DNA of 64,000 nt, taken from the NCBI GenBank assembly GCA_038049695.1, contig CP142457.1, forward strand, positions 23,636,501 to 23,700,500. The letters run 5' to 3'. Below, piece by piece: positions 1-64,000 of this stretch (positions are counted from its first letter, which is position 1; each line of letters opens with the position of its first letter). Both the position numbers and the translations under genes were made by a program. Below the pieces are notes generated by a model. The model did not search any database. It saw only the letters and a program-made list of their open reading frames with translations, and had not been told where the DNA came from. The DNA comes from Cinnamomum chago (taxonomy: Eukaryota; Streptophyta; Magnoliopsida; Laurales; Lauraceae).

Positions 1-126
1 ACTTGATCCCGGATATTTCTAGAGGTTGACTTTGTACACAGAGTCGCAACAAACAAGGTGTGGAGTCAACAATTTCCTAGTGCCGCAAAGATTCTGCTTT
101 ACTACATAAGTATCGTACGTCCCGCG

Positions 127-135
127 CGAAGTTCG
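127..135. other. Conserved 9-bp dyad in monomer A
   Basis: The sequence cgaagttcg reads almost the same on both strands (CGAA-n-TTCG) and sits in the wider cccgcgcgaagttcggg, which adds an outer CCCG/CGGG pair. The same dyad is in B at 451-459, and C has a version with one extra c (cgaagttccg, 776-785). It is present in nearly every copy; the exception noticed is unit 58 at about 55210, where the A copy reads gaagtttagg. It could be a protein-binding site, but that is inference only. It does not fit the CENP-B box pattern. Confidence 0.45.
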
Positions 136-189
136 GGTTTTCTCCTTTACAACCAGAGAACTCCCCGAAAGTGTTTACCATACCCAAGG

Positions 190-215
190 TTCGCCCGAAA
201 CCCGTTTTAAACCGA
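190..215 (+). repeat. 26-bp A/B identity tract, recombination hotspot
   Basis: The 26 bases starting ttcgcccgaaa in A are identical in B at 514-539. Both shortened dimeric units in the window (51 and 64) changed from A to B within or just upstream of this tract. It is the longest A/B identity I found by eye, so it is the natural substrate for out-of-register exchange by one monomer. Confidence 0.8.
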
Positions 216-323
216 GAAGTAGCTCGAAATATCCTAAAATGTGCATCTCAACCCAGAATACCTTCAAATGGATTTCGAGACGTGAGACAAGAGAAGGACA
301 CCCGAAACCCCTTCTAGAGTAAA

Positions 324-647
324 ACGTCATCCTGGAATTCTCTAGAGGGAGTCTTTGGACCAAGAGTCGCATTAAAACACAGTGTAGAGTCAACCATATG
401 CTCGAGCCGCATAGATTGTGTTTTCGTACTAAAGGACCGTACGACCCGCACGAAGTTCGGGTTTCCGCCTTTACAAACACTGAACTCCCCGAATGTGTCT
501 TCCCTACCCAAGATTCGCCCGAAACCCGTTTTAAACCGAAAAGTAGCTCGAAATATCTTAAAGAGCGCATCTCAACCCAGAATCCCTTCAAATGGATTTG
601 GAGCCGTAAGGAAAGATAGAGACACCCGAAACCCCATTTAGAGTAAA
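324..647 (+). repeat. Satellite monomer type B (324 bp)
   Basis: Middle monomer, from acgtcatcctgg to catttagagtaaa. It holds the only EcoRI (335-340) and XhoI (401-406) sites of the unit. The 26 bp at 514-539, from ttcgcccgaaa to taaaccga, are identical to A 190-215, exactly 324 bp apart. Most indels in the array fall in this monomer: the 60-bp loss in units 63 and 66, the 3-bp loss in unit 12, the single-base gains in units 13, 34, 52 and 61, and single-base losses in units 53 and 58. Main variants are acgtc/atgtc (325), cccgcac/cctgcac (447), cccgttt/cccattt (528) and gacaccc/gacgccc (624). Confidence 0.95.
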
Positions 648-972
648 ACGCAATCCCGGATTATTCCAAACGGAGTCTTTGGACCAAGAGTCGCATGAAA
701 CACAGTGTTGAGTCAACAACTTTCTAGAGCCGCACAGATTATGTTTTCGTTCAAAAGTACCGTACGACCCTCGCACGAAGTTCCGGTTCTCGCCCTGGCA
801 AACACTGAACTCCCCGAAAGTGATTTCCACACCCAAGACTCGCCCGAAACCCGTAGTAAACCGAAGTGTAGCTCGGAACATCCTAAAAATCGCATCTCAT
901 CCCAAAATCCCTTCATATGGATTTAGAGGCGTACGACAAGACAGGGACATCCGAAACCCCTTTTAGTTTAAA
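648..972 (+). repeat. Satellite monomer type C (325 bp)
   Basis: Third monomer, from acgcaatcccgg to ttttagtttaaa. Its start matches B over ggagtctttggaccaagagtcgcat, the stretch where the B/C exchange in unit 61 took place. It carries an extra c in the conserved dyad (cgaagttccg, 776-785) and ctcgccctgg where A and B have ctccttta or gcctttac. Variants that sort units into families are cggattatt/cggagtatt, tttctag/tttgtag, tcgcccg/tcgctcg, gtagtaaacc/gtagtaagcc/gtagtaaccc, catccca/catcgca and gacaggg/gactggg. Confidence 0.95.
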
Positions 973-3900
973 ACTTGATCCCGGATATTTCTAGAGGTTG
1001 ACTTTGTACACAGAGTCGCAACAAACAAGGTGTGGAGTCAACAATTTCCTAGTGCCGCAAAGATTCTGCTTTACTACATAAGTATCGTACGTCCCGCGCG
1101 AAGTTCGGGTTTTCTCCTTTACAACCAGAGAACTCCCCGAAAGTGTTTACCATACCCAAGGTTCGCCCGAAACCCGTTTTAAACCGAGAAGTAGCTCGAA
1201 ATATCCTAAAATGTGCATCTCAACCCAGAATACCTTCAAATGGATTTCGAGGCGTGAGACAAGAGAAGGACACCCGAAACCCCTTCTAGAGTAAAACGTC
1301 ATCCTGGAATTCTCTAGAGGGAGTCTTTGGACCAAGAGTCGCATTAAAACACAGTGTAGAGTCAACCATATGCTCGAGCCGCATAGATTGTGTTTTCGTA
1401 CTAAAGGACCGTACGACCCGCACGAAGTTCGGGTTTCCGCCTTTACAAACACTGAACTCCCCGAATGTGTCTTCCCTACCCAAGATTCGCCCGAAACCCG
1501 TTTTAAACCGAAAAGTAGCTCGAAATATCTTAAAGAGCGCATCTCAACCCAGAATCCCTTCAAATGGATTTGGAGCCGTAAGGAAAGATAGAGACGCCCG
1601 AAACCCCATTTAGAGTAAAACGCAATCCCGGATTATTCCAAACGGAGTCTTTGGACCAAGAGTCGCATGAAACACAGTGTTGAGTCAACAACTTTCTAGA
1701 GCCGCACAGATTATGTTTTCGTTCAAAAGTACCGTACGACCCTCGCACGAAGTTCCGGTTCTCGCCCTGGCAAACACTGAACTCCCCGAAAGTGATTTCC
1801 ACACCCAAGACTCGCTCGAAACCCGTAGTAAACCGAAGTGTAGCTCGGAACATCCTAAAAATCGCATCTCATCGCAAAATCCCTTCATATGGATTTAGAG
1901 GCGTACGACAAGACTGGGACATCCGAAACCCCTTTTAGTTTAAAACTTGATCCCGGATATTTCTAGAGGTTGACTTTGTACACAGAGTCGCAACAAACAA
2001 GGTGTGGAGTCAACAATTTCCTAGTGCCGCAAAGATTCTGCTTTACTACATAAGTATCGTACGTCCCGCGCGAAGTTCGGGTTTTCTCCTTTACAACCAG
2101 AGAACTCCCCGAAAGTGTTTACCATACCCAAGGTTCGCCCGAAACCCGTTTTAAACCGAGAAGTAGCTCGAAATATCCTAAAATGTGCATCTCAACCCAG
2201 AATACCTTCAAATGGATTTCGAGGCGTGAGACAAGAGAAGGACACCCGAAACCCCTTCTAGAGTAAAATGTCATCCTGGAATTCTCTAGAGGGAGTCTTT
2301 GGACCAAGAGTCGCATTAAAACACAGTGTAGAGTCAACCATATGCTCGAGCCGCATAGATTGTGTTTTCGTACTAAAGGACCGTACGACCTGCACGAAGT
2401 TCGGGTTTCCGCCTTTACAAACACTGAACTCCCCGAATGTGTCTTCCCTACCCAAGATTCGCCCGAAACCCATTTTAAACCGAAAAGTAGCTCGAAATAT
2501 CTTAAAGAGCGCATCTCAACCCAGAATCCCTTCAAATGGATTTGGAGCCGTAAGGAAAGATAGAGACACCCGAAACCCCATTTAGAGTAAAACGCAATCC
2601 CGGATTATTCCAAACGGAGTCTTTGGACCAAGAGTCGCATGAAACACAATGTTGAGTCAACAACTTTGTAGAGCCGCACAGATTATGTTTTCGTTCAAAA
2701 GTACCGTACGACCCTCGCACGAAGTTCCGGTTCTCGCCCTGGCAAACACTGAACTCCCCGAAAGTGATTTCCACACCCAAGACTCGCCCGAAACCCGTAG
2801 TAAGCCGAAGTGTAGCTCGGAACATCCTAAAAATCGCATCTCATCCCAAAATCCCTTCATATGGATTTAGAGGCGTACGACAAGACAGGGACATCCGAAA
2901 CCCCTTTTAGTTTAAAACTTGATCCCGGATATTTCTAGAGGTTGACTTTGTACACAGAGTCGCAACAAACAAGGTGTGGAGTCAACAATTTCCTAGTGCC
3001 GCAAAGATTCTGCTTTACTACATAAGTATCGTACGTCCCGCGCGAAGTTCGGGTTTTCTCCTTTACAACCAGAGAACTCCCCGAAAGTGTTTACCATACC
3101 CAAGGTTCGCCCGAAACCCGTTTTAAACCGAGAAGTAGCTCGAAATATCCTAAAATGTGCATCTCAACCCAGAATACCTTCAAATGGATTTCGAGGCGTG
3201 AGACAAGAGAAGGACACCCGAAACCCCTTCTAGAGTAAAACGTCATCCTGGAATTCTCTAGAGGGAGTCTTTGGACCAAGAGTCGCATTAAAACACAGTG
3301 TAGAGTCAACCTTATGCTCGAGCCGCATAGATTGTGTTTTCGTACTAAAGGACCGTACGACCCGCACGAAGTTCGGGTTTCCGCCTTTACAAACACTGAA
3401 CTCCCCGAATGTGTCTTCCCTACCCAAGATTCGCCCGAAACCCGTTTTAAACTGAAAAGTAGCTCGAAATATCTTAAAGAGCGCATCTCAACCCAGAATC
3501 CCTTCAAATGGATTTGGAGCCGTAAGGAAAGATAGAGACGCCCGAAACCCCATTTAGAGTAAAACGCAATCCCGGAGTATTCCAAACGGAGTCTTTGGAC
3601 CAAGAGTCGCATGAAACACAGTGTTGAGTCAACAACTTTCTAGAGCCGCACAGATTATGTTTTCGTTCAAAAGTACCGTACGACCCTCGCACGAAGTTCC
3701 GGTTCTCGCCCTGGCAAACACTGAACTCCCCGAAAGTGATTTCCACACCCAAGACTCGCCCGAAACCCGTAGTAAGCCGAAGTGTAGCTCGGAACATCCT
3801 AAAAATCGCATCTCATCCCAAAATCCCTTCATATGGATTTAGAGGCGTACGACAAGACAGGGACATCCGAAACCCCTTTTAGTTTAAAACTTGATCCCGG

Positions 3901-4860
3901 ATATTTCTAGAGGTTGACTTTGTACACAGAGTCGCAACAAACAAGGTGTGGAGTCAACAATTTCCTAGTGCCGCAAAGATTCTGCTTTACTACATAAGTA
4001 TCGTACGTCCCGCGCGAAGTTCGGGTTTTCTCCTTTACAACCAGAGAACTCCCCGAAAGTGTTTACCATACCCAAGGTTCGCCCGAAACCCGTTTTAAAC
4101 CGAGAAGTAGCTCGAAATATCCTAAAATGTGCATCTCAACCCAGAATACCTTCAAATGGATTTCGAGGCGTGAGACAAGAGAAGGACACCCGAAACCCCT
4201 TCTAGAGTAAAACGTCATCCTGGAATTCTCTAGAGGGAGTCTTTGGACCAAGAGTCGCATTAAAACACAGTGTAGAGTCAACCATATGCTCGAGCCGCAT
4301 AGATTGTGTTTTCGTACTAAAGGACCGTACGACCTGCACGAAGTTCGGGTTTCCGCCTTTACAAACACTGAACTCCCCGAATGTGTCTTCCCTACCCAAG
4401 ATTCGTCCGAAACCCGTTTTAAACCGAAAAGTAGCTCGAAATATCTTAAAGAGCGCATCTCAACCCAGAATCCCTTCAAATGGATTTGGAGCCGTAAGGA
4501 AAGATAGAGACACCCGAAACCCCATTTAGAGTAAAACGCAATCCCGGAGTATTCCAAACGGAGTCTTTGGACCAAGAGTCGCATGAAACACAGTGTTGAG
4601 TCAACAACTTTGTAGAGCCGCACAGATTATGTTTTCGTTCAAAAGTACCGTACGACCCTCGCACGAAGTTCCGGTTCTCGCCCTGGCAAACACTGAACTC
4701 CCCGAAAGTGATTTCCACACCCAAGACTCGCCCGAAACCCGTAGTAAGCCGAAGTGTAGCTCGGAACATCCTAAAAATCGCATCTCATCCCAAAATCCCT
4801 TCATATGGATTTAGAGGCGTACGACAAGACAGGGACATCCGAAACCCCTTTTAGTTTAAA

Positions 4861-6804
4861 ACTTGATCCCGGATATTTCTACAGGTTGACTTTGTACACA
4901 GAGTCGCAACAAACAAGGTGTGGAGTCAACAATTTCCTAGTGCCGCAAAGATTCTGCTTTACTACATAAGTATCGTACGTCCCGCGCGAAGTTCGGGTTT
5001 TCTCCTTTACAACCAGAGAACTCCCCGAAAGTGTTTACCATACCCAAGGTTCGCCCGAAACCCGTTTTAAACCGAGAAGTAGCTCGAAATATCCTAAAAT
5101 GTGCATCTCAACCCAGAATACCTTCAAATGGATTTCGAGGCGTGAGACAAGAGAAGGACACCCGAAACCCCTTCTAGAGTAAAACGTCATCCTGGAATTC
5201 TCTAGAGGGAGTCTTTGGACCAAGAGTCGCATTAAAACACAGTGTAGAGTCAACCATATGCTCGAGCCGCATAGATTGTGTTTTCGTACTAAAGGACCGT
5301 ACGACCTGCACGAAGTTCGGGTTTCCGCCTTTACAAACACTGAACTCCCCGAATGTGTCTTCCCTACCCAAGATTCGTCCGAAACCCGTTTTAAACCGAA
5401 AAGTAGCTCGAAATATCTTAAAGAGCGCATCTCAACCCAGAATCCCTTCAAATGGATTTGGAGCCGTAAGGAAAGATAGAGACACCCGAAACCCCATTTA
5501 GAGTAAAACGCAATCCCGGAGTATTCCAAACGGAGTCTTTGGACCAAGAGTCGCATGAAACACAGTGTTGAGTCAACAACTTTGTAGAGCCGCACAGATT
5601 ATGTTTTCGTTCAAAAGTACCGTACGACCCTCGCACGAAGTTCCGGTTCTCGCCCTGGCAAACACTGAACTCCCCGAAAGTGATTTCCACACCCAAGACT
5701 CGCCCGAAACCCGTAGTAAGCCGAAGTGTAGCTCGGAACATCCTAAAAATCGCATCTCATCCCAAAATCCCTTCATATGGATTTAGAGGCGTACGACAAG
5801 ACAGGGACATCCGAAACCCCTTTTAGTTTAAAACTTGATCCCGGATATTTCTAGAGGTTGACTTTGTACACAGAGTCGCAACAAACAAGGTGTGGAGTCA
5901 ACAATTTCCTAGTGCCGCAAAGATTCTGCTTTACTACATAAGTATCGTACGTCCCGTGCGAAGTTCGGGTTTTCTCCTTTACAACCAGAGAACTCCCCGA
6001 AAGTGTTTACCATACCCAAGGTTCGCCCGAAACCCGTTTTAAACCGAGAAGTAGCTCGAAATATCCTAAAATGTGCATCTCAACCCAGAATACCTTCAAA
6101 TGGATTTCGAGGCGTGAGACAAGAGAAGGACACCCGAAACCCCTTCTAGAGTAAAACGTCATCCTGGAATTCTCTAGAGGGAGTCTTTGGACCAAGAGTC
6201 GCATTAAAACACAGTGTAGAGTCAACCATATGCTCGAGCCGCATAGATTGTGTTTTCGTACTAAAGGACCGTACGACCCGCACGAAGTTCGGGTTTCCGC
6301 CTTTACAAACACTGAACTCCCCGAATGTGTCTTCCCTACCCAAGATTCGCCCGAAACCCGTTTTAAACCGAAAAGTAGCTCGAAATATCTTAAAGAGCGC
6401 ATCTCAACCCAGAATCCCTTCAAATGGATTTGGAGCCGTAAGGAAAGATAGAGACGCCCGAAACCCCATTTAGAGTAAAACGCAATCCCGGATTATTCCA
6501 AACGGAGTCTTTGGACCAAGAGTCGCATGAAACACAGTGTTGAGTCAACAACTTTCTAGAGCCGCACAGATTATGTTTTCGTTCAAAAGTACCGTACGAC
6601 CCTCGCACGAAGTTCCGGTTCTCGCCCTGGCAAACACTGAACTCCCCGAAAGTGATTTCCACACCCAAGACTCGCTCGAAACCCGTAGTAAACCGAAGTG
6701 TAGCTCGGAACATCCTAAAAATCGCATCTCATCGCAAAATCCCTTCATATGGATTTAGAGGCGTACGACAAGACTGGGACATCCGAAACCCCTTTTAGTT
6801 TAAA
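4861..6804 (+). repeat. HOR units 6-7
   Basis: Unit 6 (4861) is almost a copy of unit 5 beside it (D family) but starts with ctacaggttgac, a mark otherwise seen in L-family units (24, 27, 30, 43), so it looks chimeric near its 5' end. Unit 7 (5833) is an F-family unit close to unit 2, with a private cccgtgcg in A (about 5956). Confidence 0.85.
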
Positions 6805-11661: not shown

Positions 11662-14600
11662 ACTTGATCCCGGATATTTCTAGAGGTTGACTTTGTACAC
11701 AGAGTCGCAACAAACAAGGTGTGGAGTCAACAATTTCCTAGTGCCGCAAAGATTCTGCTTTACTACATAAGTATCGTACGTCCCGCGCGAAGTTCGGGTT
11801 TTCTCCTTTACAACCAGAGAACTCCCCGAAAGTGTTTACCATACCCAAGGTTCGCCCGAAACCCGTTTTAAACCGAGAAGTAGCTCGAAATATCCTAAAA
11901 TGTGCATCTCAACCCAGAATACCTTCAAATGGATTTCGAGGCGTGAGACAAGAGAAGGACACCCGAAACCCCTTCTAGAGTAAAACGTCATCCTGGAATT
12001 CTCTAGAGGGAGTCTTTGGACCAAGAGTCGCATTAAAACACAGTGTAGAGTCAACCATATGCTCGAGCCGCATAGATTGTGTTTTCGTACTAAAAGGACC
12101 GTACGACCCGCACGAAGTTCGAGTTTCCGCCTTTACAAACACTGAACTCCCCGAATGTGTCTTCCCTACCCAAGATTCGCCCGAAACCCGTTTTAAACCG
12201 AAAAGTAGCTCGAAATATCTTAAAGAGCGCATCTCAACCCAGAATCCCTTCAAATGGATTTGGAGCCGTAAGGAAAGATAGAGACGCCCGAAACCCCATT
12301 TAGAGTAAAACGCAATCCCGGATTATTCCAAACGGAGTCTTTGGACCAAGAGTCGCATGAAACACAGTGTTGAGTCAACAACTTTCTAGAGCCGCACAGA
12401 TTATGTTTTCGTTCAAAAGTACCGTACGACCCTCGCACGAAGTTCCGGTTCTCGCCCTGGCAAACACTGAACTCCCCGAAAGTGATTTCCACACCCAAGA
12501 CTCGCCCGAAACCCGTAGTAAGCCGAAGTGTAGCTCGGAACATCCTAAAAATCGCATCTCATCCCAAAATCCCTTCATATGGATTTAGAGGCGTACGACA
12601 AGACAGGGACATCCGAAACCCCTTTTAGTTTAAAACTTGATCCCGGATATTTCTAGAGGTTGACTTTGTACACAGAGTCGCAACAAACAAGGTGTGGAGT
12701 CAACAATTTCCTAGTGCCGCAAAGATTCTGCTTTACTACATAAGTATAGTACGTCCCGCGCGAAGTTCGGGTTTTCTCCTTTACAACCAGAGAACTCCCC
12801 GAAAGTGTTTACCATACCCAAGGTTCGCCCGAAACCCGTTTTAAACCGAGAAGTAGCTCGAAATATCCTAAAATGTGCATCTCAACCCAGAATACCTTCA
12901 AATGGATTTCGAGGCGTGAGACAAGAGAAGGACACCCGAAACCCCTTCTAGAGTAAAACGTCATCCTGGAATTCTCTAGAGGGAGTCTTTGGACCAAGAG
13001 TCGCATTAAAACACAGTGTAGAGTCAACCATATGCTCGAGCCGCATAGATTGTGTTTTCGTACTAAAGGACCGTACGACCCGCACGAAGTTCGGGTTTCC
13101 GCCTTTACAAACACTGAACTCCCCGAATGTGTCTTCCCTACCCAAGATTCGCCCGAAACCCGTTTTAAACCGAAAAGTAGCTCGAAATATCTTAAAGAGC
13201 GCATCTCAACCCAGAATCCCTTCAAATGGATTTGGAGCCGTAAGGAAAGATAGAGACACCCGAAACCCCATTTAGAGTAAAACGCAATCCCGGATTATTC
13301 CAAACGGAGTCTTTGGACCAAGAGTCGCATGAAACACAGTGTTGAGTCAACAACTTTCTAGAGCCGCACAGATTATGTTTTCGTTCAAAAGTACCGTACG
13401 ACCCTCGCACGAAGTTCCGGTTCTCGCCCTGGCAAACACTGAACTCCCCGAAAGTGATTTCCACACCCAAGACTCGCCCGAAACCCGTAGTAAGCCGAAG
13501 TGTAGCTCGGAACATCCTAAAAATCGCATCTCATCGCAAAATCCCTTCATATGGATTTAGAGGCGTACGACAAGACAGGGACATCCGAAACCCCTTTTAG
13601 TTTAAAACTTGATCCCGGATATTTCTAGAGGTTGACTTTGTACACAGAGTCGCAACAAACAAGGTGTGGAGTCAACAATTTCCTAGTGCCGCAAAGATTC
13701 TGCTTTACTACATAAGTATTGTACGTCCCGCGCGAAGTTCGGGTTTTCTCCTTTACAACCAGAGAACTCCCCGAAAGTGTTTACCATACCCAAGGTTCGC
13801 CCGAAACCCGTTTTAAACCGAGAAATAGCTCGAAATATCCTAAAATGTGCATCTCAACCCAGAATACCTTCAAATGGATTTCGAGGCGTGAGACAAGAGA
13901 AGGACACCCGAAACCCCTTCTAGAGTAAAACGTCATCCTGGAATTCTCTAGAGGGAGTCTTTGGACCAAGAGTCGCATTAAAACACAGGGTAGAGTCAAC
14001 CTTATGCTCGAGCCGCATAGATTGTGTTTTCGTACTAAAGGACCGTACGACCCGCACGAAGTTCGGGTTTCCGCCTTTACAAACACTGAACTCCCCGAAT
14101 GTGTCTTCCCTACCCAAGATTCGCCCGAAACCCGTTTTAAACCGAAAAGTAGCTCGAAATATCTTAAAGAGCGCATCTCAACCCAGAATCCCTTCAAATG
14201 GATTTGGAGCCGTAAGGAAAGATAGAGACGCCCGAAACCCCATTTAGAGTAAAACGCAATCCCGGATTATTCCAAACGGAGTCTTTGGACCAAGAGTCGC
14301 ATGAAACACAGTGTTGAGTCAACAACTTTGTAGAGCCGCACAGATTATGTTTTCGTTCAAAAGTACCGTACGACCCTCGCACGAAGTTCCGGTTCTCGCC
14401 CTGGCAAACACTGAACTCCCCGAAAGTGATTTCCACACCCAAGACTCGCCCGAAACCCGTAGTAAGCCGAAGTGTAGCTCGGAACATCCTAAAAATCGCA
14501 TCTCATCCCAAAATCCCTTCATATGGATTTAGAGGCGTACGACAAGACAGGGACATCCGAAACCCCTTTTAGTTTAAAACTTGATCCCGGATATTTCTAG

Positions 14601-17494
14601 AGGTTGACTTTGTACACAGAGTCGCAACAAACAAGGTGTGGAGTCAACAATTTCCTAGTGCCGCAAAGATTCTGCTTTACTACATAAGTATCGTACGTCC
14701 CGCGCGAAGTTCGGGTTTTCTCCTTTACAACCAGAGAACTCCCCGAAAGTGTTTACCATACCCAAGGTTCGCCCGAAACCCGTTTTAAACCGAGAAGTAG
14801 CTCGAAATATCCTAAAATGTGCATCTCAACCCAGAATACCTTCAAATGGATTTCGAGGCGTGAGACAAGAGAAGGACACCCGAAACCCCTTCTAGAGTAA
14901 AACGTCATCCTGGAATTCTCTAGAGGGAGTCTTTGGACCAAGAGTCGCATTAAAACACAGTGTAGAGTCAACCATATGCTCGAGCCGCATAGATTGTGTT
15001 TTCGTACTAAAGGACCGTACGACCCGCACGAAGTTCGGGTTTCCGCCTTTACAAACACTGAACTCCCCGAATGTGTCTTCCCTACCCAAGATTCGCCCGA
15101 AACCCGTTTTAAACCGAAAAGTAGCTCGAAATATCTTAAAGAGCGCATCTCAACCCAGAATCCCTTCAAATGGATTTGGAGCCGTAAGGAAAGATAGAGA
15201 CACCCGAAACCCCATTTAGAGTAAAACGCAATCCCGGATTATTCCAAACGGAGTCTTTGGACCAAGAGTCGCATGAAACACAGTGTTGAGTCAACAACTT
15301 TCTAGAGCCGCACAGATTATGTTTTCGTTCAAAAGTACCGTACGACCCTCGCACGAAGTTCCGGTTCTCGCCCTGGCAAACACTGAACTCCCCGAAAGTG
15401 ATTTCCACACCCAAGACTCGCCCGAAACCCGTAGTAAACCGAAGTGTAGCTCGGAACATCCTAAAAATCGCATCTCATCCCAAAATCCCTTCATATGGAT
15501 TTAGAGGCGTACGACAAGACAGGGACATCCGAAACCCCTTTTAGTTTAAAACTTGATCCCGGATATTTCTAGAGGTTGACTTTGTACACAGAGTCGCAAC
15601 AAACAAGGTGTGGAGTCAACAATTTCCTAGTGCCGCATAGATTCTGCTTTACTACATAAGTATCGTACGTCCCGCGCGAAGTTCGGGTTTTCTCCTTTAC
15701 AACCAGAGAACTCCCCGAAAGTGTTTACCATACCCAAGGTTCGCCCGAAACCCGTTTTAAACCGAGAAGTAGCTCGAAATATCCTAAAATGTGCATCTCA
15801 ACCCAGAATACCTTCAAATGGATTTCGAGGCGTGAGACAAGAGAAGGACACCCGAAACCCCTTCTAGAGTAAAACGTCATCCTGGAATTCTCTAGAGGGA
15901 GTCTTTGGACCAAGAGTCGCATTAAAACACAGTGTAGAGTCAACCTTATGCTCGAGCCGCATAGATTGTGTTTTCGTACTAAAGGACCGTACGACCCGCA
16001 CGAAGTTCGGGTTTCCGCCTTTACAAACACTGAACTCCCCGAATGTGTCTTCCCTACCCAAGATTCGCCCGAAACCCGTTTTAAACCGAAAAGTAGCTCG
16101 AAATATCTTAAAGAGCGCATCTCAACCCAGAATCCCTTCAAATGGATTTGGAGCCGTAAGGAAAGATAGAGACACCCGAAACCCCATTTAGAGTAAAACG
16201 CAATCCCGGAGTATTCCAAACGGAGTCTTTGGACCAAGAGTCGCATGAAACAGAGTGTTGGGTCAACAACTTTCTAGAGCCGCACAGATTATGTTTTCGT
16301 TCAAAAGTACCGTACGACCCTCGCACGAAGTTCCGGTTCTCGCCCTGGCAAACACTGAACTCCCCGAAAGTGATTTCCACACCCAAGACTCGCCCGAAAC
16401 CCGTAGTAAGCCGAAGTGTAGCTCGGAACATCCTAAAAATCGCATCTCATCCCAAAATCCCTTCATATGGATTTAGAGGCGTACGACAAGACAGGGACAT
16501 CCGAAACCCCTTTTAGTTTAAAACTTGATCCCGGATATTTCTAGAGGTTGACTTTGTACACAGAGTCGCAACAAACAAGGTGTGGAGTCAACAATTTCCT
16601 AGTGCCGCAAAGATTCTGCTTTACTACATAAGTATCGTACGTCCCGCGCGAAGTTCGGGTTTTCTCCTTTACAACCAGAGAACTCCCCGAAAGTGTTTAC
16701 CATACCCAAGGTTCGCCCGAAACCCGTTTTAAACCGAGAAGTAGCTCGAAATATCCTAAAATGTGCATCTCAACCCAGAATACCTTCAAATGGATTTCGA
16801 GGCGTGAGACAAGAGAAGGACACCCGAAACCCCTTCTAGAGTAAAACGTCATCCTGGAATTCTCTAGAGGGAGTCTTTGGACCAAGAGTCGCATTAAAAC
16901 ACAGGGTAGAGTCAACCTTATGCTCGAGCCGCATAGATTGTGTTTTCGTACTAAAGGACCGTACGACCCGCACGAAGTTCGGGTTTCCGCCTTTACAAAC
17001 ACTGAACTCCCCGAATGTGTCTTCCCTACCCAAGATTCGCCCGAAACCCGTTTTAAACCGAAAAGTAGCTCGAAATATCTTAAAGAGCGCATCTCAACCC
17101 AGAATCCCTTCAAATGGATTTGGAGCCGTAAGGAAAGATAGAGACGCCCGAAACCCCATTTAGAGTAAAACGCAATCCCGGATTATTCCAAACGGAGTCT
17201 TTGGACCAAGAGTCGCATGAAACACAGTGTTGAGTCAACAACTTTCTAGAGCCGCACAGATTATGTTTTCGTTCAAAAGTACCGTACGACCCTCGCACGA
17301 AGTTCCGGTTCTCGCCCTGGCAAACACTGAACTCCCCGAAAGTGATTTCCACACCCAAGACTCGCCCGAAACCCGTAGTAAGCCGAAGTGTAGCTCGGAA
17401 CATCCTAAAAATCGCATCTCATCCCAAAATCCCTTCATATGGATTTAGAGGCGTACGACAAGACAGGGACATCCGAAACCCCTTTTAGTTTAAA
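11662..17494 (+). repeat. HOR units 13-18, left copy of a 20,413-bp-offset duplication
   Basis: Starts are 11662 (973 bp), 12635, 13607, 14579, 15551 and 16523. Unit 13 has one extra a in B (aaaa at 12092-12095) and cgagtttcc instead of cgggtttcc. Unit 14 has tatagtacg in A (12748). Units 15 and 18 have cagggtagag in B. Unit 17 has cagagtgttggg in C. All these marks recur, in the same order and spacing, in units 34-39; the match continues into unit 19 / unit 40. Confidence 0.88.
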
Positions 17495-20400
17495 ACTTGA
17501 TCCCGGATATTTCTAGAGGTTGACTTTGTACACAGAGTCGCAACAAACAAGGTGTGGAGTCAACAATTTCCTAGTGCCGCAAAGATTCTGCTTTACTACA
17601 TAAGTATCGTACGTCCCGCGCGAAGTTCGGGTTTTCTCCTTTACAACCAGAGAACTCCCCGAAAGTGTTTACCATACCCAAGGTTCGCCCGAAACCCGTT
17701 TTAAACCGAGAAGTAGCTCGAAATATCCTAAAATGTGCATCTCAACCCAAAATACCTTCAAATGGATTTCGAGACGTGAGACAAGAGAAGGACACCCGAA
17801 ACCCCTTCTAGAGTAAAACGTCATCCTGGAATTCTCTAGAGGGAGTCTTTGGACCAAGAGTCGCATTAAAACACAGTGTAGAGTCAACCATATGCTCGAG
17901 CCGCATAGATTGTGTTTTCGTACTAAAGGACCGTACGACCCGCACGAAGTTCGGGTTTCCGCCTTTACAAACACTGAACTCCCCGAATGTGTCTTCCCTA
18001 CCCAAGATTCGCCCGAAACCCGTTTTAAACCGAAAAGTAGCTCGAAATATCTTAAAGAGCGCATCTCAACCCAGAATCCCTTCAAATGGATTTGGAGCCG
18101 TAAGGAAAGATAGAGACACCCGAAACCCCATTTAGAGTAAAACGCAATCCCGGATTATTCCAAACGGAGTCTTTGGACCAAGAGTCGCATGAAACACAGT
18201 GTTGAGTCAACAACTTTCTAGAGCCGCACAGATTATGTTTTCGTTCAAAAGTACCGTACGACCCTCGCACGAAGTTCCGGTTCTCGCCCTGGCAAACACT
18301 GAACTCCCCGAAAGTGATTTCCACACCCAAGACTCGCCCGAAACCCGTAGTAAACCGAAGTGTAGCTCGGAACATCCTAAAAATCGCATCTCATCCCAAA
18401 ATCCCTTCATATGGATTTAGAGGCGTACGACAAGACAGGGACATCCGAAACCCCTTTTAGTTTAAAACTTGATCCCGGATATTTCTAGAGGTTGACTTTG
18501 TACACAGAGTCGCAACAAACAAGGTGTGGAGTCAACAATTTCCTAGTGCCGCAAAGATTCTGCTTTACTACATAAGTATCGTACGTCCCGCGCGAAGTTC
18601 GGGTTTTCTCCTTTACAACCAGAGAACTCCCCGAAAGTGTTTACCATACCCAAGGTTCGCCCGAAACCCGTTTTAAACCGAGAAGTAGCTCGAAATATCC
18701 TAAAATGTGCATCTCAACCCAGAATACCTTCAAATGGATTTCGAGGCGTGAGACAAGAGAAGGACACCCGAAACCCCTTCTAGAGTAAAACGTCATCCTG
18801 GAATTCTCTAGAGGGAGTCTTTGGACCAAGAGTCGCATTAAAACACAGTGTAGAGTCAACCATATGCTCGAGCCGCATAGATTGTGTTTTCGTACTAAAG
18901 GACCGTACGACCCGCACGAAGTTCGGGTTTCCGCCTTTACAAACACTGAACTCCCCGAATGTGTCTTCCCTACCCAAGATTCGCCCGAAACCCGTTTTAA
19001 ACCGAAAAGTAGCTCGAAATATCTTAAAGAGCGCATCTCAACCCAGAATCCCTTCAAATGGATTTGGAGCAGTAAGGAAAGATAGAGACGCCCGAAACCC
19101 CATTTAGAGTAAAACGCAATCCCGGATTATTCCAAACGGAGTCTTTGGACCAAGAGTCGCATGAAACACAGTGTTGAGTCAACAACTTTCTAGAGCCGCA
19201 CAGATTATGTTTTCGTTCAAAAGTACCGTACGACCCTCGCACGAAGTTCCGGTTCTCGCCCTGGCAAACACTGAACTCCCCGAAAGTGATTTCCACACCC
19301 AAGACTCGCTCGAAACCCGTAGTAAACCGAAGTGTAGCTCGGAACATCCTAAAAATCGCATCTCATCGCAAAATCCCTTCATATGGATTTAGAGGCGTAC
19401 GACAAGACTGGGACATCCGAAACCCCTTTTAGTTTAAAACTTGATCCCGGATATTTCTAGAGGTTGACTTTGTACACAGAGTCGCAACAAACAAGGTGTG
19501 GAGTCAACAATTTCCTAGTGCCGCAAAGATTCTGCTTTACTACATAAGTATCGTACGTCCCGCGCGAAGTTCGGGTTTTCTCCTTTACAACCAGAGAACT
19601 CCCCGAAAGTGTTTACCATACCCAAGGTTCGCCCGAAACCCGTTTTAAACCGAGAAGTAGCTCGAAATATCCTAAAATGTGCATCTCAACCCAGAATACC
19701 TTCAAATGGATTTCGAGGCGTGAGACAAGAGAAGGACACCCGAAACCCCTTCTAGAGTAAAATGTCATCCTGGAATTCTCTAGAGGGAGTCTTTGGACCA
19801 AGAGTCGCATTAAAACACAGTGTAGAGTCAACCATATGCTCGAGCCGCATAGATTGTGTTTTCGTACTAAAGGACCGTACGACCTGCACGAAGTTCGGGT
19901 TTCCGCCTTTACAAACACTGAACTCCCCGAATGTGTCTTCCCTACCCAAGATTCGCCCGAAACCCATTTTAAACCGAAAAGTAGCTCGAAATATCTTAAA
20001 GAGCGCATCTCAACCCAGAATCCCTTCAAATGGATTTGGAGCCGTAAGGAAAGATAGAGACACCCGAAACCCCATTTAGAGTAAAACGCAATCCCGGATT
20101 ATTCCAAACGGAGTCTTTGGACCAAGAGTCGCATGAAACACAATGTTGAGTCAACAACTTTGTAGAGCCGCACAGATTATGTTTTCGTTCAAAAGTACCG
20201 TACGACCCTCGCACGAAGTTCCGGTTCTCGCCCTGGCAAACACTGAACTCCCCGAAAGTGATTTCCACACCCAAGACTCGCCCGAAACCCGTAGTAAGCC
20301 GAAGTGTAGCTCGGAACATCCTAAAAATCGCATCTCATCCCAAAATCCCTTCATATGGATTTAGAGGCGTACGACAAGACAGGGACATCCGAAACCCCTT

Positions 20401-21382
20401 TTAGTTTAAAACTTGATCCCGGATATTTCTAGAGGTTGACTTTGTACACAGAGTCGCAACAAACAAGGTGTGGAGTCAACAATTTCCTAGTGCCGCAAAG
20501 ATTCTGCTTTACTACATAAGTATCGTACGTCCCGCGCGAAGTTCGGGTTTTCTCCTTTACAACCAGAGAACTCCCCGAAAGTGTTTACCATACCCAAGGT
20601 TCGCCCGAAACCCGTTTTAAACCGAGAAGTAGCTCGAAATATCCTAAAATGTGCATCTCAACCCAGAATACCTTCAAATGGATTTCGAGGCGTGAGACAA
20701 GAGAAGGACACCCGAAACCCCTTCTAGAGTAAAACGTCATCCTGGAATTCTCTAGAGGGAGTCTTTGGACCAAGAGTCGCATTAAAACACAGTGTAGAGT
20801 CAACCTTATGCTCGAGCCGCATAGATTGTGTTTTCGTACTAAAGGACCGTACGACCCGCACGAAGTTCGGGTTTCCGCCTTTACAAACACTGAACTCCCC
20901 GAATGTGTCTTCCCTACCCAAGATTCGCCCGAAACCCGTTTTAAACGGAAAAGTAGCTCGAAATATCTTAAAGAGCGCATCTCAACCCAGAATCCCTTCA
21001 AATGGATTTGGAGCCGTAAGGAAAGATAGAGACGCCCGAAACCCCATTTAGAGTAAAACGCAATCCCGGAGTATTCCAAACGGAGTCTTTGGACCAAGAG
21101 TCGCATGAAACACAGTGTTGAGTCAACAACTTTCTAGAGCCGCACAGATTATGTTTTCGTTCAAAAGTACCGTACGACCCTCGCACGAAGTTCCGGTTCT
21201 CGCCCTGGCAAACACTGAACTCCCCGAAAGTGATTTCCACACCCAAGACTCGCCCGAAACCCGTAGTAAGCCGAAGTGTAGCTCGGAACATCCTAAAAAT
21301 CGCATCTCATCCCAAAATCCCTTCATATGGATTTAGAGGCGTACGACAAGACAGGGACATCCGAAACCCCTTTTAGTTTAAA
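17495..21382 (+). repeat. HOR units 19-22, right copy of the 17,494-bp-offset duplication
   Basis: Starts are 17495, 18467, 19439 and 20411. They match units 1-4 one by one: gagacgtgag in unit 19 as in unit 1, F-family C in unit 20 as in unit 2, atgtc/cctgcac/cccattt with tttgtag in unit 21 as in unit 3, and ccttatg with cggagtatt in unit 22 as in unit 4. Private changes are acccaaaatacc (unit 19), gagcagtaag (unit 20) and aaacggaaa (unit 22). The match continues into unit 23 (as unit 5). Confidence 0.85.
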
Positions 21383-48599: not shown

Positions 48600-49247
48600 A
48601 CTTGATCCCGGATATTTCTAGAGGTTGACTTTGTACACAGAGTCGCAACAAACAAGGTGTGGAGTCAACAATTTCCTAGTGCCGCAAAGATTCTGCTTTA
48701 CTACATAAGTATCGTACGTCCCGCGCGAAGTTCGGGTTTTCTCCTTTACAACCAGAGAACTCCCCGAAAGTGTTTACCATACCCAAGATTCGCCCGAAAC
48801 CCGTTTTAAACCGAAAAGTAGCTTGAAATATCTTAAAGAGCGCATCTCAACCCAGAATCCCTTCAAATGGATTTGGAGCCGTAAGGAAAGATAGAGACGC
48901 CCGAAACCCCATTTAGAGTAAAACGCAATCCCGGAGTATTCCAAACGGAGTCTTTGGACCAAGAGTCGCATGAAACATAGTGTTGGGTCAACAACTTTCT
49001 AGAGCCGCACAGATTATGTTTTCGTTCAAAAGTACCGTACGACCCTCGCACGAAGTTCCGGTTCTCGCCCTGGCAAACACTGAACTCCCCGAAAGTGATT
49101 TCCACACCCAAGACTCGCCCGAAACCCGTAGTAAACCGAAGTGTAGCTCGGAACATCCTAAAAATCGCATCTCATCCCAAAATCCCTTCATATGGATTTA
49201 GAGGCGTACGACAAGACAGGGACATCCGAAACCCCTTTTAGTTTAAA
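48600..49247 (+). repeat. HOR unit 51, 648-bp dimer (A/B hybrid + C)
   Basis: Monomer A runs from 48600 to the A-specific base at 48779 and continues as B from the B-specific base at 48788. The exchange therefore lies in 48780-48787 (tacccaag), and exactly one monomer length (324 bp) is lost. The C monomer carries acatagtgttggg, a mark found only from here rightwards. Confidence 0.93.
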
Positions 49248-57994: not shown

Positions 57995-59291
57995 ACTTGA
58001 TCCCGGATATTTCTAGAGGTTGACTTTGTACACAGAGTCGCAACAAACAAGGTGTGGAGTCAACAATTTCCTAGTGCCGCAAAGATTCTGCTTTACTACA
58101 TAAGTATCGTACGTCCCGCGCGAAGTTCGGGTTTTCTCCTTTACAACCAGAGAACTCCCCGAAAGTGTTTACCATACCCAAGGTTCGCCCGAAACCCGTT
58201 TTAAACCGAGAAGTAGCTCGAAATATCCTAAAATGTGCATCTCAACCCAGAATACCTTCAAATGGATTTCGAGGCGTGAGACAAGAGAAGGACACCCGAA
58301 ACCCCTTCTAGAGTAAAACGTCATCCTGGAATTCTCTAGAGGGAGTCTTTGGACCAAGAGTCGCATTAAAACACAGTGTAGAGTCAACCTTATGCTCGAG
58401 CCGCATAGATTGTGTTTTCGTACTAAAGGACCGTACGACCCGCACGAAGTTCGGGTTTCCGCCTTTACAAACACTGAACTCCCCGAATGTGTCTTCCCTA
58501 CCCAAGATTCGCCCGAAACCCGTTTTAAACCGAAAAGTAGCTCGAAATATCTTAAAGAGCGCATCTCAACCCAGAATCCCTTCAAATGGATTTGGAGCCG
58601 TAAGGAAAGATAGAGACACCCGAAACCCCATTTAGAGTAAAACGCAATCCCGGAGTATTCCAAACGGAGTCTTTGGAGCAAGAGTCGCATTAAAACACAG
58701 TGTAGAGTCAACCATATGCTCGAGCCGCATAGATTGTGTTTTCGTACTAAAAGGACCGTACGACCCGCACGAAGTTCGGGTTTCCGCCTTTACAAACACT
58801 GAACTCCCCGAATGTGTCTTCCCTACCCAAGATTCGCCCGAAACCCGTTTTAAACCGAAAAGTAGCTCGAAATATCTTAAAGAGCGCATCTCAACCCAGA
58901 ATCCCTTCAAATGGATTTGGAGCCGTAAGGAAAGATAGAGACGCCCGAAACCCCATTTAGAGTAAAACGCAATCCCGGAGTATTCCAAACGGAGTCTTTG
59001 GACCAAGAGTCGCATGAAACATAGTGTTGGGTCAACAACTTTCTAGAGCCGCACAGATTATGTTTTCGTTCAAAAGTACCGTACGACCCTCGCACGAAGT
59101 TCCGGTTCTCGCCCTGGCAAACACTGAACTCCCCGAAAGTGATTTCCACACCCAAGACTCGCCCGAAACCCGTAGTAAGCCGAACTGTAGCTCGGAACAT
59201 CCTAAAAATCGCATCTCATCCCAAAATCCCTTCATATGGATTTAGAGGCGTACGACAAGACAGGGACATCCGAAACCCCTTTTAGTTTAAA
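57995..59291 (+). repeat. HOR unit 61, 1,297-bp tetramer (A, B, C/B hybrid, C)
   Basis: After normal A and B, a C monomer starts with cggagtatt and the mark ggagcaagag (g at 58678, as in unit 57), then becomes B from the B-specific t at 58691. The exchange is thus in 58679-58690, inside the stretch where B and C starts agree. A further B body, with one extra a (58749-58752), and a full C follow. Net gain over a normal unit is 325 bp, one monomer plus one base. Confidence 0.92.
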
Positions 59292-60263: not shown

Positions 60264-61176
60264 ACTTGATCCCGGATATTTCTAGAGGTTGACTTTGTAC
60301 ACAGAGTCGCAAGAAACACGGTGTGGAGTCAACAATTTCCTAGTGCCGCAAAGATTCTGCTTTACTACAAAAGTATCGTACGTCCCGCGCGAAGTTCGGG
60401 TTTTCTCCTTTACAACCAGAGAACTCCCCGAAAGTGTTTACCATACCCAAGGTTCGCCCGAAACCCGTTTTAAACCGAGAAGTAGCTCGAAATATCCTAA
60501 AAGGTGCATCCTAACACAGAATACCTTCAAATGGATTTCGAGGCGTGAGACAAGAGAAGGACACCCGAAACCCCCTTCTAGAGTAAAACGTGATCCTGGA
60601 ATTCTCTAGAGGGAGTCTTTGGACCAAGAGTCGCATTAAAACACAGTGTAGAGTCCACCATATGCTCGAGCCGCATAGATCGTGTTTTCGTACTAAAGGA
60701 CCGTACGACCCGCACGAAGTTCGGGTTTCCGCTTTTACAAACACTGAACTCCCCGAATGTGTCTTCCGTACCCAAGATTCGCAGAATCCCTTCAAATGGA
60801 TTTGGAGCCGTAAGGAAAGATAGAGACACCCGAAACCCCATTTAGAGTAAAACGCAATCCCGGATTATTCCAAACGGAGTCTTTGGACCAAGAGTCGCAT
60901 GAAACACAGTGTTGAGTCAACAACTTTCTAGAGCCGCACAGATTATGTTTTCGTTCAAAAGTACCGTACGACCCTCGCACGAAGTTCCGGTTCTCGCCCT
61001 GGCAAACACTGAACTCCCCGAAAGTGATTTCCACACCCAAGATTCGCCCGAAACCCGTGGTAAACCGAAGTGTAGCTCGGAACATCCTAAAAATCGCATC
61101 TCATCCCAAAATCCCTTCATATGGATTTAGAGGCGTACGACAAGACAGGGACATCCGAAACCCCTTTTAGTTTAAA
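60264..61176 (+). repeat. HOR unit 63, 913 bp (60-bp loss in B)
   Basis: B jumps from gattcgc to agaatccc at about 60781-60782. This removes 60 bp, including most of the conserved cgcccgaaacccg core and the gtagctcg block, and leaves a 1-bp ambiguity (c) at the join. A has one extra c (ccccctt, about 60580), and agaaacacgg, ctacaaaag and aaaaggtgc as further marks. C has aagattcgcccg and cccgtggtaaacc. Confidence 0.92.
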
Positions 61177-61824
61177 ACTTGATCCCGGATATTTCTAGAG
61201 GTTGACTTTGTACACAGAGTCGCAACAAACAAGGTGTGGAGTCAACAATTTCCTAGTGCCGCAAAGATTCTGCTTTACTACATAAGTATCGTACGTCCCG
61301 CGCGAAGTTCGGGTTTTCTCCTTTACAACCAGAGAACTCCCCGAAAGTGTTTACCATACCCAAGGTTCGCCCGAAACCCGTTTTAAACCGAAAAGTAGCT
61401 CGAAATATCTTAAAGAGCGCATCTCAACCCAGAATCCCTTCAAATGGATTTGGAGCCGTAAGGAAAGATAGAGACGCCCGAAACCCCATTTAGAGTAAAA
61501 CGCAATCCCGGAGTATTCCAAACGGAGTCTTTGGACCAAGAGTCGCATGAAACATAGTGTTGGGTCAACAACTTTCTAGAGCCGCACAGATTATGTTTTC
61601 GTTCAAAAGTACCGTACGACCCTCGCACGAAGTTCCGGTTCTCGCCCTGGCAAACACTGAACTCCCCGAAAGTGATTTCCACACCCAAGACTCGCCCGAA
61701 ACCCGTAGTAAGCCGAACTGTAGCTCGGAACATCCTAAAAATCGCATCTCATCCCAAAATCCCTTCATATGGATTTAGAGGCGTACGACAAGACAGGGAC
61801 ATCCGAAACCCCTTTTAGTTTAAA
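61177..61824 (+). repeat. HOR unit 64, 648-bp dimer (A/B hybrid + C)
   Basis: A-specific bases last to 61365 (caagg) and B-specific bases start at 61392 (ccgaaaag), so the exchange is within 61366-61391, the 26-bp A/B identity tract. This is a different place from unit 51. Its B part and C match the end of unit 61 at +2,533 bp (acatagtgttggg, cgaactgtagc). Confidence 0.93.
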
Positions 61825-62796
61825 ACTTGATCCCGGATATTTCTAGAGGTTGACTTTGTACACAGAGTCGCAACAAACAAGGTGTGGAGTCAACAATTTC
61901 CTAGTGCCGCATAGATTCTGCTTTACTACATAAGTATCGTACGTCCCGCGCGAAGTTCGGGTTTTCTCCTTTACAACCAGAGAACTCCCCGAAAGTGTTT
62001 ACCATACCCAAGGTTCGCCCGAAACCCGTTTTAAACCGAGAAGTAGCTCGAAATATCCTAAAATGTGCATCTCAACCCAGAATACCTTCAAATGGATTTC
62101 GAGGCGTGAGACAAGAGAAGGACACCCGAAACCCCTTCTAGAGTAAAACGTGATCCTGGAATTCTCTAGAGGGACTCTTTGGACCAAGAGTCGCATTAAA
62201 ACACAGTGTAGAGTCAACCATATGCTCGAGCCGCATAGATTGTGTTTTCGTACTAAAGGACCGTACGACCCGCACGAAGTTCGGGTTTCCGCCTTTACAA
62301 ACACTGAACTCCCCGAATGTGTCTTCCCTACCCAAGATTCGCCCGAAACCCGTTTTAAACCGAAAAGTAGCTCGAAATATCTTAAAGAGCGCATCTCAAC
62401 CCAGAATCCCTTCAAATGGATTTGGAGCCGTAAGGAAAGATAGAGACACCCGAAACCCCATTTAGAGTAAAACGCAATCCCGGATTATTCCAAACGGAGT
62501 CTTTGGACCAAGAGTCGCATGAAACACAGTGTTGAGTCAACAACTTTCTAGAGCCGCACAGATTATGTTTTTGTTAAAAAGTACCGTACGACCCTCGCAC
62601 GAAGTTCCGGTTCTCGCCCTGGCAAACACTGAACTCCCCGAAAGTGATTTCCACACCAAAGACTCGCTCGAAACCCGTAGTAAACCGAAGTGTAGCTCGG
62701 AACATCCTAAAAATCGCATCTCATCCCAAAATCCCTTCATATGGATTTAGAGGCGTACGAAAAGACTGGGACACCCGAAACCCCTTTTAGTTTAAA
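61825..62796 (+). repeat. HOR unit 65, copy of unit 62
   Basis: It repeats the rare marks of unit 62 (gggactctttgg, tttttgttaaaaagt, acgaaaagactggg, gacacccg). One noted difference is caccaaagac instead of caccaatgac. Confidence 0.88.
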
Positions 62797-63709
62797 ACTT
62801 GATCCCGGATATTTCTAGAGGTTGACTTTGTACACAGAGTCGCAAGAAACACGGTGTGGAGTCAACAATTTCCTAGTGCCGCAAAGATTCTGCTTTACTA
62901 CAAAAGTATCGTACGTCCCGCGCGAAGTTCGGGTTTTCTCCTTTACAACCAGAGAACTCCCCGAAAGTGTTTACCATACCCAAGGTTCGCCCGAAACCCG
63001 TTTTAAACCGAGAAGTAGCTCGAAATATCCTAAAAGGTGCATCTTAACACAGAATACCTTCAAATGGATTTCGAGGCGTGAGACAAGAGAAGGACACCCG
63101 AAACCCCCTTCTAGAGTAAAACGTGATCCTGGAATTCTCTAGAGGGAGTCTTTGGACCAAGAGTCGCATTAAAACACAGTGTAGAGTCCACCATATGCTC
63201 GAGCCGCATAGATCGTGTTTTCGTACTAAAGGACCGTACGACCCGCACGAAGTTCGGGTTTCCGCTTTTACAAACACTGAACTCCCCGAATGTGTCTTCC
63301 GTACCCAAGATTCGCAGAATCCCTTCAAATGGATTTGGAGCCGTAAGGAAAGATAGAGACACCCGAAACCCCATTTAGAGTAAAACGCAATCCCGGATTA
63401 TTCCAAACGGAGTCTTTGGACCAAGAGTCGCATGAAACACAGTGTTGAGTCAACAACTTTCTAGAGCCGCACAGATTATGTTTTCGTTCAAAAGTACCGT
63501 ACGACCCTCGCACGAAGTTCCGGTTCTCGCCCTGGCAAACACTGAACTCCCCGAAAGTGATTTCCACACCCAAGATTCGCCCGAAACCCGTGGTAAACCG
63601 AAGTGTAGCTCGGAACATCCTAAAAATCGCATCTCATCCCAAAATCCCTTCATATGGATTTAGAGGCGTACGACAAGACAGGGACATCCGAAACCCCTTT
63701 TAGTTTAAA
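62797..63709 (+). repeat. HOR unit 66, 913 bp, copy of unit 63
   Basis: It has the same 60-bp loss in B (join at about 63314-63315), the same extra c in A and the same agaaacacgg and ctacaaaag marks as unit 63. It differs in A by atcttaacac where unit 63 has atcctaacac. Confidence 0.92.
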
Positions 63710-64000
63710 ACTTGATCCCGGATATTTCTAGAGGTTGACTTTGTACACAGAGTCGCAACAAACAAGGTGTGGAGTCAACAATTTCCTAGTGCCGCAAAGA
63801 TTCTGCTTTACTACATAAGTATCGTACGTCCCGCGCGAAGTTCGGGTTTTCTCCTTTACAACTAGAGAACTCCCCGAAAGTGTTTACCATACCCAAGGTT
63901 CGCCCGAAACCCGTTTTAAACCGAGAAGTAGCTCGAAATATCCTAAAAGGTGCATCTCAACCCAGAATACCTTCAAATGGATTTCGAGGCGTGAGAGAAG
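63710..64000 (+). repeat. HOR unit 67, partial (first 291 bp of A)
   Basis: Cut by the window end within monomer A. It carries aactagagaac, aaaaggtgc (as in units 63 and 66) and gagagaag (L-family mark). Unlike unit 64, A continues as A past the identity tract, so the 2,533-bp duplication does not extend through here. Confidence 0.9.

What the first reader, a model, noticed from the sequence alone, without database searches (positions are those of the whole stretch)
1..64000. Unrecognised trimeric HOR satellite filling 64 kb without a single insertion
Seen: 66 full units, fixed A-B-C order, one orientation, no transposon or unique base. Known: diverged monomers inside near-identical multimers define HOR satellites such as human alpha satellite, and clear HORs are less often described outside primates. 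Inference: a young, actively homogenised array, possibly a functional centromere core. I do not recognise the family, so it may be undescribed.
Basis: partly seen in the sequence, partly recalled or inferred. Interest (0 to 1): 0.72.

Follow-up and report, generated by a model that had tools for sequence, protein, structure and literature searches.

The report
Putative centromere satellite of a cinnamon-tree
This stretch is part of a long block of near-identical three-part DNA repeats inside chromosome 7 of the tree Cinnamomum chago, built from a repeat already published as that tree's putative centromere motif; its layered organisation, differing from chromosome to chromosome, resembles human centromere DNA, but a centromere role has not been tested.

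Summary
The order is not perfectly fixed: of 67 A-initiated units, 61 are intact ABC, five are variants and one is cut by the window end. The source is Cinnamomum chago chromosome 7: plastid and mitochondrial lengths match its genome paper to the base. That paper prints this satellite's consensus as the 'putative centromere tandem repeat motif', so the family is not undescribed; its main text does not mention higher-order repeats. New here: the trimer forms a core of about 1.1 Mb in a layered array spanning about 2.2 Mb; sampled arrays on other chromosomes have other unit lengths; classes A, B and C are shared by chromosomes 4 and 7, while monomers of 1 and 5 intermix, much like human suprachromosomal families. 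Chimeric monomers and copied blocks point to unequal exchange or break-induced replication. Centromere function is plausible but untested; chromosomes 3, 8 and 11 showed no copies in nine limited samplings.

The parts
1..64000 (+). satellite array, core C7 trimer type; G000:C7:23636501-23700500
   Evidence: place; coverage, one strand
1..323 (+). first A monomer
324..647 (+). first B monomer
648..972 (+). first C monomer; closes the first 972-bp HOR unit
1..5047 (+). multi-HOR block duplicated at lag 17,494 (second copy 17495-22541), at least 99.8% identical in 2-kb windows
11776..19090 (+). multi-HOR block duplicated at lag 20,413 (second copy 32189-39503), at least 99.8% identical in 2-kb windows
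21271..27875 (+). stretch repeating itself every 3 HOR units (lag 2,916 bp)
48600..49247 (+). AC unit: B missing; its first monomer is an A-to-B chimera with breakpoint near base 180
57995..59291 (+). ABBC unit (extra B; the second B is best fitted with about 24 bases of C type at its start)
60264..61176 (+). ABC unit with a 60-bp deletion in B (B is 60588-60851)
61177..61824 (+). second AC unit, A-to-B chimera with breakpoint near base 189
62797..63709 (+). second ABC unit with an identical 264-bp B (B is 63121-63384)

Best explanation
The window is part of the homogenised core of the centromeric or immediately pericentromeric satellite array of Cinnamomum chago chromosome 7. SHOWN: a ~324-bp monomer family diverged into classes A, B and C; an ABC trimer is repeated head to tail, with near-identical copies over about 1.1 Mb of chromosome 7, beside more diverged ABC layers; blocks of several units are duplicated and chimeric monomers exist. 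INFERRED: the motor is unequal sister-chromatid exchange or break-induced replication, and the array supplies the repetitive, methylated chromatin on or beside which CENH3 nucleosomes and the kinetochore assemble. Roughly 0.85 that the array marks the centromere region; roughly 0.55 that the core itself binds CENH3.
For: Identity: G000 contigs C13 and C14 are 707,525 and 152,753 bp, exactly the mitochondrial and chloroplast lengths in PMC11068913, with 12 chromosomes. That paper calls this monomer the putative centromere motif (88-92% identity). Position: copies span 21.81-24.02 of 64.1 Mb of C7; 10-kb samples at 21.5, 24.2 and 25.0 Mb hold none. Core: an A-specific 33-mer has 1,075 hits within 1 mismatch, all forward; the roughly 100 places listed all lie on C7, from 22,635,201 on; near-identical units reach 23.81 Mb. 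Layers (best match among A, B, C and the published motif, for the monomers that could cut out): 0.951-0.960 at 21.85 Mb, 0.935-0.954 at 22.5, 0.988-0.997 at 23.0 and 23.81, 0.843-0.941 at 23.9, 0.861-0.892 at 24.02 Mb apart from one mis-cut piece at 0.469. Exchange: two A-to-B chimeras, 99.4% and 99.7% identical to a two-part fit; a run of 5 consecutive units matched at one lag, against at most 3 in 200 order shuffles. Methylation-type mutation: transitions per site 0.117 CG, 0.133 CHG, 0.033 CHH. WW dinucleotides recur every ~9.8 bp in the HOR (0 of 500 shuffles reach the 9.5-11 bp peak); for the single monomer 4 of 500 do.
Against: No CENH3, methylation or FISH data. Non-centromeric arrays can also form HORs: Palv148 in poplar showed no CENH3 peaks yet has HORs (PMC12046899, passages). 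In human centromere 8 CENP-A sits beside, not in, the most uniform layer (PMC8997354, passages), which weakens 'the core binds CENH3'. C3, C8 and C11 showed no copies in nine pattern samplings (five of these lists were complete, four were cut at about 100 places). C1, C2, C5, C7 and C12 also carry copies away from their main cluster. The strongest WW period in the HOR is 7.7 bp, not 9.8 bp, so the nucleosome signal is modest.
Confidence: 0.75

Rival explanations
1. A non-centromeric heterochromatic HOR block: same amplification by unequal exchange, but the kinetochore of chromosome 7 sits on other DNA.
For: Such blocks exist in poplar (PMC12046899, passages). C3, C8 and C11 showed no copies in nine pattern samplings, so centromeres in this genome may not need it; extra copies lie off the main cluster on C5 (49.0 and 56.8 Mb) and C7 (28.7 Mb).
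Against: The located copies mostly cluster in one interior region per chromosome, with exceptions; the original authors placed putative centromeres on the motif for 'most chromosomes'; core-and-flank layering like that described for human centromere 8 (PMC8997354).
Confidence: 0.2
2. Assembly artefact: the uniform trimer run is inflated or collapsed by the assembler.
For: Near-identical 972-bp units are hard to assemble; the paper's region and structure quality scores are 95.31 and 97.73, not 100.
Against: Variant patterns and chimeric units distinguish copies along the window; the paper used 80x HiFi and 30x ONT with one gap genome-wide. Array length may still be off; I did not see reads.
Confidence: 0.05
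3. Array kept by a sequence-specific binding protein (CENP-B-like) rather than by neutral homogenisation; not exclusive of the best explanation.
For: Some 20-bp blocks are slightly more conserved (about 0.93 against a mean of 0.89); several near matches to the CENP-B box core (motif recalled) with 1-2 mismatches.
Against: No exact CENP-B box core in the HOR or the family consensus; conservation along the monomer is nearly even, 0.83-0.93 in 20-bp windows (which held no C2, C6 or C12 monomers).
Confidence: 0.05

Closest known systems
Cinnamomum chago putative centromere tandem repeat motif (Tao et al. 2024, PMC11068913; outline, abstract and passages seen)
   Same: Same species and, by organelle lengths, same assembly; same ~324-bp tandem family, A/B/C 88-92% identical to the printed motif (323 bp)
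   Different: The main text holds no occurrence of higher-order, HOR, monomer or CENH3; classes, trimer and chromosome-specific arrays are not described there; supplements not seen
Avocado chromosome-specific centromeric repeats, PaCEN1016 (PMC11220182, passages)
   Same: Same family Lauraceae, 12 chromosomes, units mostly over 1 kb, seven chromosomes share a similar unit, the others differ
   Different: 1016 is near 3 x 339, which is only suggestive
Human alpha-satellite HORs and suprachromosomal families (PMC8997354, passages)
   Same: Diverged monomers inside near-identical multimers, chromosome-specific HORs, classes shared by groups of chromosomes, layers with a uniform core
   Different: 324-bp rather than 171-bp monomer; no exact CENP-B box; no CENH3 evidence; no claim of common ancestry
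Plant centromeric satellites with HORs: Arabidopsis Cen178 (named in passages of PMC12371157 and PMC12046899), Papaver PCEN338 (PMC11406182, passages), poplar Palv156 (PMC12046899, passages)
   Same: HORs of a centromeric satellite in a plant; Palv156 monomers cluster by chromosome
   Different: A different monomer length; here class sets are shared between chromosomes in the sample tree. I did not compare unit regularity or array lengths with these

Membership tests
C. chago putative centromere motif family | Sequence identity to the printed motif over full length | tested here: met
   A 0.879, B 0.917, C 0.883
C. chago putative centromere motif family | Tandem arrays of the same unit length in the same genome | tested here: met
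   323-325 bp here against a 323-bp motif; 46,512 pattern hits genome-wide within 3 mismatches, 0 in the reversed-pattern control
Higher-order-repeat satellite | Multimer copies far more alike than the monomers inside them | tested here: met
   99.17% between the 61 intact trimers against 78-83% between A, B and C
Higher-order-repeat satellite | Chromosome-specific multimers | tested here: met
   In samples: C1 3292/3295, C4 971 and 3243, C5 646, C6 3252/3069/1806, C7 972/1944, C9 633/1267/1900; the listed places of an A-specific 33-mer (about 100 of 1,075) all lie on C7. C4 also has a trimer of the same classes, less uniform (0.65 at lag 971)
Functional centromere satellite | CENH3 occupancy | not testable with these tools
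   no ChIP data at hand
Functional centromere satellite | Located at the primary constriction of every chromosome | tested here: inconclusive
   copies found on 9 of 12 chromosomes, at interior positions; C3, C8, C11 not seen, some lists capped; the constriction itself is not visible in sequence
Alpha satellite | 171-bp monomer | tested here: not met
   monomer 323-325 bp; self-identity at lag 162 is 0.24
Alpha satellite | CENP-B box in alternate monomers | tested here: not met
   no exact match to the box core (recalled) in HOR or family consensus; best has 1 mismatch
Avocado PaCEN1016 | Sequence homology | not testable with these tools
   the paper points to a supplementary table for the sequence; no supplement look-ups allowed

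The most novel reading that the evidence does not exclude
A magnoliid tree carries an alpha-satellite-like system that evolved independently: one ancestral ~324-bp monomer split into class sets shared by chromosome groups (A/B/C on 4 and 7; another on 1 and 5, with 9 nearby), each chromosome then built its own HOR core with older layers at the flanks, and degenerate relics remain on chromosomes 2 and 12. If avocado's 1,016-bp PaCEN1016 proves to be a trimer of the same monomer, the trimeric HOR would be an old, family-wide trait of Lauraceae.
Probability: 0.45. Interest if true: 0.55.

Novelty: new member of a known kind. Interest (0 to 1): 0.4.

Why it matters
It turns a published one-line centromere motif into a described HOR system with core, layers, shared classes and differing multimers. 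That makes C. chago a test case, outside primates and the usual model plants, for whether suprachromosomal families and layered expansion are general products of centromere turnover. The variant string along the window also gives markers for tracking array change between trees.

Tried and rejected
Undescribed family: rejected, the motif is in print. Non-coding RNA: no Rfam family at gathering score in window 1-6000, the only part scanned. Simple 325-bp monomeric array (TRF): rejected, best period is 972. Nucleosome-dimer origin of the monomer (2 x 162): no signal at lag 162; instead weak internal similarity at lags 147 and 108 (0 of 500 dinucleotide shuffles reach the best value). CENP-B box: no exact match. 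Conserved inverted repeat in the monomer: the best score lies below the shuffled mean. First estimate of the C1 unit as about ten monomers (notes): rejected, it is six monomers, one of them split by a 1,341-bp insert. Organism through genome-note wording and the decimal plastid length: nothing useful; a text search for short words of the satellite found the paper. Paper searches that listed no other paper on this satellite: (judged from listings). Pfam on nine open stretches beside or inside arrays: matches in 3 of 9 (DUF4283; PMD below its cut-off; RVT_1 with zf-RVT), none for the two stretches of the C1 insert.
Full report
OBSERVATION. The window is satellite from end to end. A profile built from the family covers the 64,000 bases (coverage 1.0 as rounded) with 200 hits, all on the + strand. 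TRF reports a 325-bp period, but self-identity peaks at 972 bp (0.886) and its multiples. The first unit splits into A (323 bp), B (324) and C (325), 78-83% identical to each other. Segmentation gives 198 monomers, the last one partial. Of 67 A-initiated units, 61 are intact ABC (969-973 bp), 2 are AC (648 bp), 1 is ABBC (1297 bp), 2 carry one and the same 60-bp deletion in B (913 bp), and 1 is cut by the window end. The 61 intact units differ by 8.1 sites on average (99.17% identity).

SOURCE. G000 has 12 large contigs plus C13 (707,525 bp) and C14 (152,753 bp). A text search for six short words of the satellite returned one paper, on the Cinnamomum chago genome (PMC11068913). Its text gives a chloroplast of 152,753 bp, a mitochondrion of 707,525 bp and 12 chromosomes, so the window lies in that assembly; I take contig C7 to be its chromosome 7. 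[quoted passage not shown] Put on the same strand, the motif (323 bp) is 87.9%, 91.7% and 88.3% identical to A, B and C. The paper's main text has no occurrence of higher-order, HOR, monomer or CENH3; I saw its outline, abstract and passages, and no supplements or figures.

ARRAY ON CHROMOSOME 7. Satellite copies were found from 21.81 to 24.02 Mb; 10-kb samples at 21.5, 24.2 and 25.0 Mb hold none. I sampled this span, I did not read all of it. An A-specific 33-mer has 1,075 hits within one mismatch, all forward; the places listed (about 100) all lie on C7 from 22,635,201 on. If lists run in contig order, as they appear to, there are none on C1-C6; C8-C12 are not excluded. 1,075 x 972 bp is 1.04 Mb, in line with near-identical units reaching 23.81 Mb. 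The best match of sampled monomers among A, B, C and the published motif falls from 0.988-0.997 at 23.0 and 23.81 Mb to 0.951-0.960 at 21.85, 0.935-0.954 at 22.5, 0.843-0.941 at 23.9 and 0.861-0.892 at 24.02 Mb, where one further mis-cut piece scored 0.469: a uniform core beside more diverged layers. At 22.46-22.54 Mb the repeat is a 1,944-bp doubled unit (0.997 self-identity in L024).

OTHER CHROMOSOMES. A family pattern has 37,396 forward and 9,116 reverse hits within three mismatches, with 0 in the reversed-pattern control; at about 324 bp each that is roughly 15 Mb. Sampling rare variants located copies on C1, C2, C4, C5, C6, C7, C9, C10 and C12, at interior positions. C3, C8 and C11 were not seen; five of the nine lists were complete and four were cut, and C6 and C9, which do carry large arrays, are also missing from several lists, so this is not proof of absence. 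Unit lengths in the samples differ: C1 3292/3295 bp, C4 971 and 3243, C5 646, C6 3252, 3069 and 1806, C9 633/1267/1900.

SHARED CLASSES. A tree of 185 distinct sequences (181 monomers from 19 sampled stretches, the window A/B/C and the published motif) puts A, B and C each in its own clade holding C4 and C7 monomers (local supports 0.996 for A, 0.986 for B, 0.995 for C). C1 and C5 monomers intermix in another part (support 0.957), in which the C9 monomers form their own clade (0.982); C10 and C6 lie outside these groups; C2 and C12 together form the most diverged clade (support 1.0). Several deeper nodes are weak (0.35-0.55). C2 and C12 samples are degenerate (mean 0.70-0.73 to the other chromosomes). 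This matches the logic of human suprachromosomal families (PMC8997354, passages), without implying common descent.

HOW IT CHANGES. The two AC units hold A-to-B chimeric monomers with breakpoints near bases 180 and 189; a two-part fit reaches 99.4% and 99.7%. Blocks of several units are duplicated: 1-5047 at lag 17,494, 11776-19090 at lag 20,413, and a 3-unit step over 21271-27875. Runs of consecutive matching units reach 5, against at most 3 in 200 order shuffles. Unequal exchange or break-induced replication (both discussed in PMC8997354) explain this; the data do not separate them. Counted as distinct changes from the majority base (direction not tested with an outgroup), transitions per site are 0.117 at CG, 0.133 at CHG, 0.033 at CHH and about 0.017 at A/T (Fisher p 0.002 and 0.005 against CHH; counts are small: 14, 8 and 9 events). 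This fits plant CG and CHG methylation (recalled knowledge). Yet CpG observed/expected is 1.17 in the HOR against 0.42-0.66 in three flanking samples, so turnover appears to outpace decay, or the array is partly unmethylated. In the relic samples on C2 and C12 it is 0.94 and 0.91.

FUNCTION. Position, size, layering and the authors' own assignment favour a centromere array. Against this stand the unseen C3, C8 and C11, copies away from the main clusters, and the poplar Palv148 case of HOR arrays without CENH3 peaks (PMC12046899, passages). There is no exact CENP-B box core (motif recalled). A 9.8-bp WW periodicity in the HOR is reached by 0 of 500 shuffles, but the three monomers are related; for a single monomer 4 of 500 reach it, and a 7.7-bp peak is stronger: modest support for nucleosome phasing.

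COMPARISON. In avocado (same family), 12 chromosome-specific centromeric repeats, mostly over 1 kb, were reported; seven are alike (PMC11220182, passages). I could not see their sequences. HORs were found in 76 of 171 species of plants and animals with Sanger data (PMC4053949, passages), were annotated in Papaver (PMC11406182, passages) and are called common in most plants, though lacking in hop (PMC12371157, passages). The kind is known; the organisation described here for this satellite did not turn up in the listings of my searches, which cover open-licence PubMed Central papers only.

Noticed in passing
L029:1194-2534 (C1 77.97 Mb) and L030: The C1 HOR unit (3,292 bp) is six monomers, one split by a 1,341-bp insert with an 18-bp imperfect target duplication and an A-rich 3' end; it looks like a truncated LINE captured and amplified with the HOR. 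The inserts at 77.97 and 82.40 Mb are 98.3% alike. Pfam found nothing in two open stretches, so the LINE label is inference.
   Followed up: partly
C1 77.97-78.08 Mb (+) and 81.00-81.05 and 82.40 Mb (-): Arrays with closely similar HOR units (3,292 and 3,295 bp) lie in opposite orientations on one chromosome, pointing to an inversion inside or beside the array.
   Followed up: no
C7 21.8108-21.8134 Mb: Two hits on the - strand at the left edge of the otherwise forward C7 array: a possible small inverted piece.
   Followed up: no
C7 22.46-22.54 Mb and 22.416-22.448 Mb: Cascading HORs: a 1,944-bp period over about 80 kb and a step near 4,858 bp next to it.
   Followed up: partly
C3, C8, C11: No copy of the family appeared in nine pattern samplings, four of them with cut lists; these chromosomes may have other centromere DNA.
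   Followed up: partly
C2 45.84 and 54.16-54.22 Mb, C5 42.86 and 56.7-56.8 Mb, C12 32.2 and 54.53 Mb, C1 68.7 Mb: Small clusters matching a degenerate relic subfamily, possible old centromere positions.
   Followed up: partly
family consensus, lags 147 and 108: The 323-bp monomer shows weak internal self-similarity with recurring CCCGAA words (positions 164, 194, 301), hinting at an older, shorter repeat.
   Followed up: partly
L009-L020 (contig starts): 5,000-10,000 of the first 10,000 bases of each of the 12 large contigs read N, in multiples of 2,500 (withheld or masked), so telomeres could not be checked.
   Followed up: no
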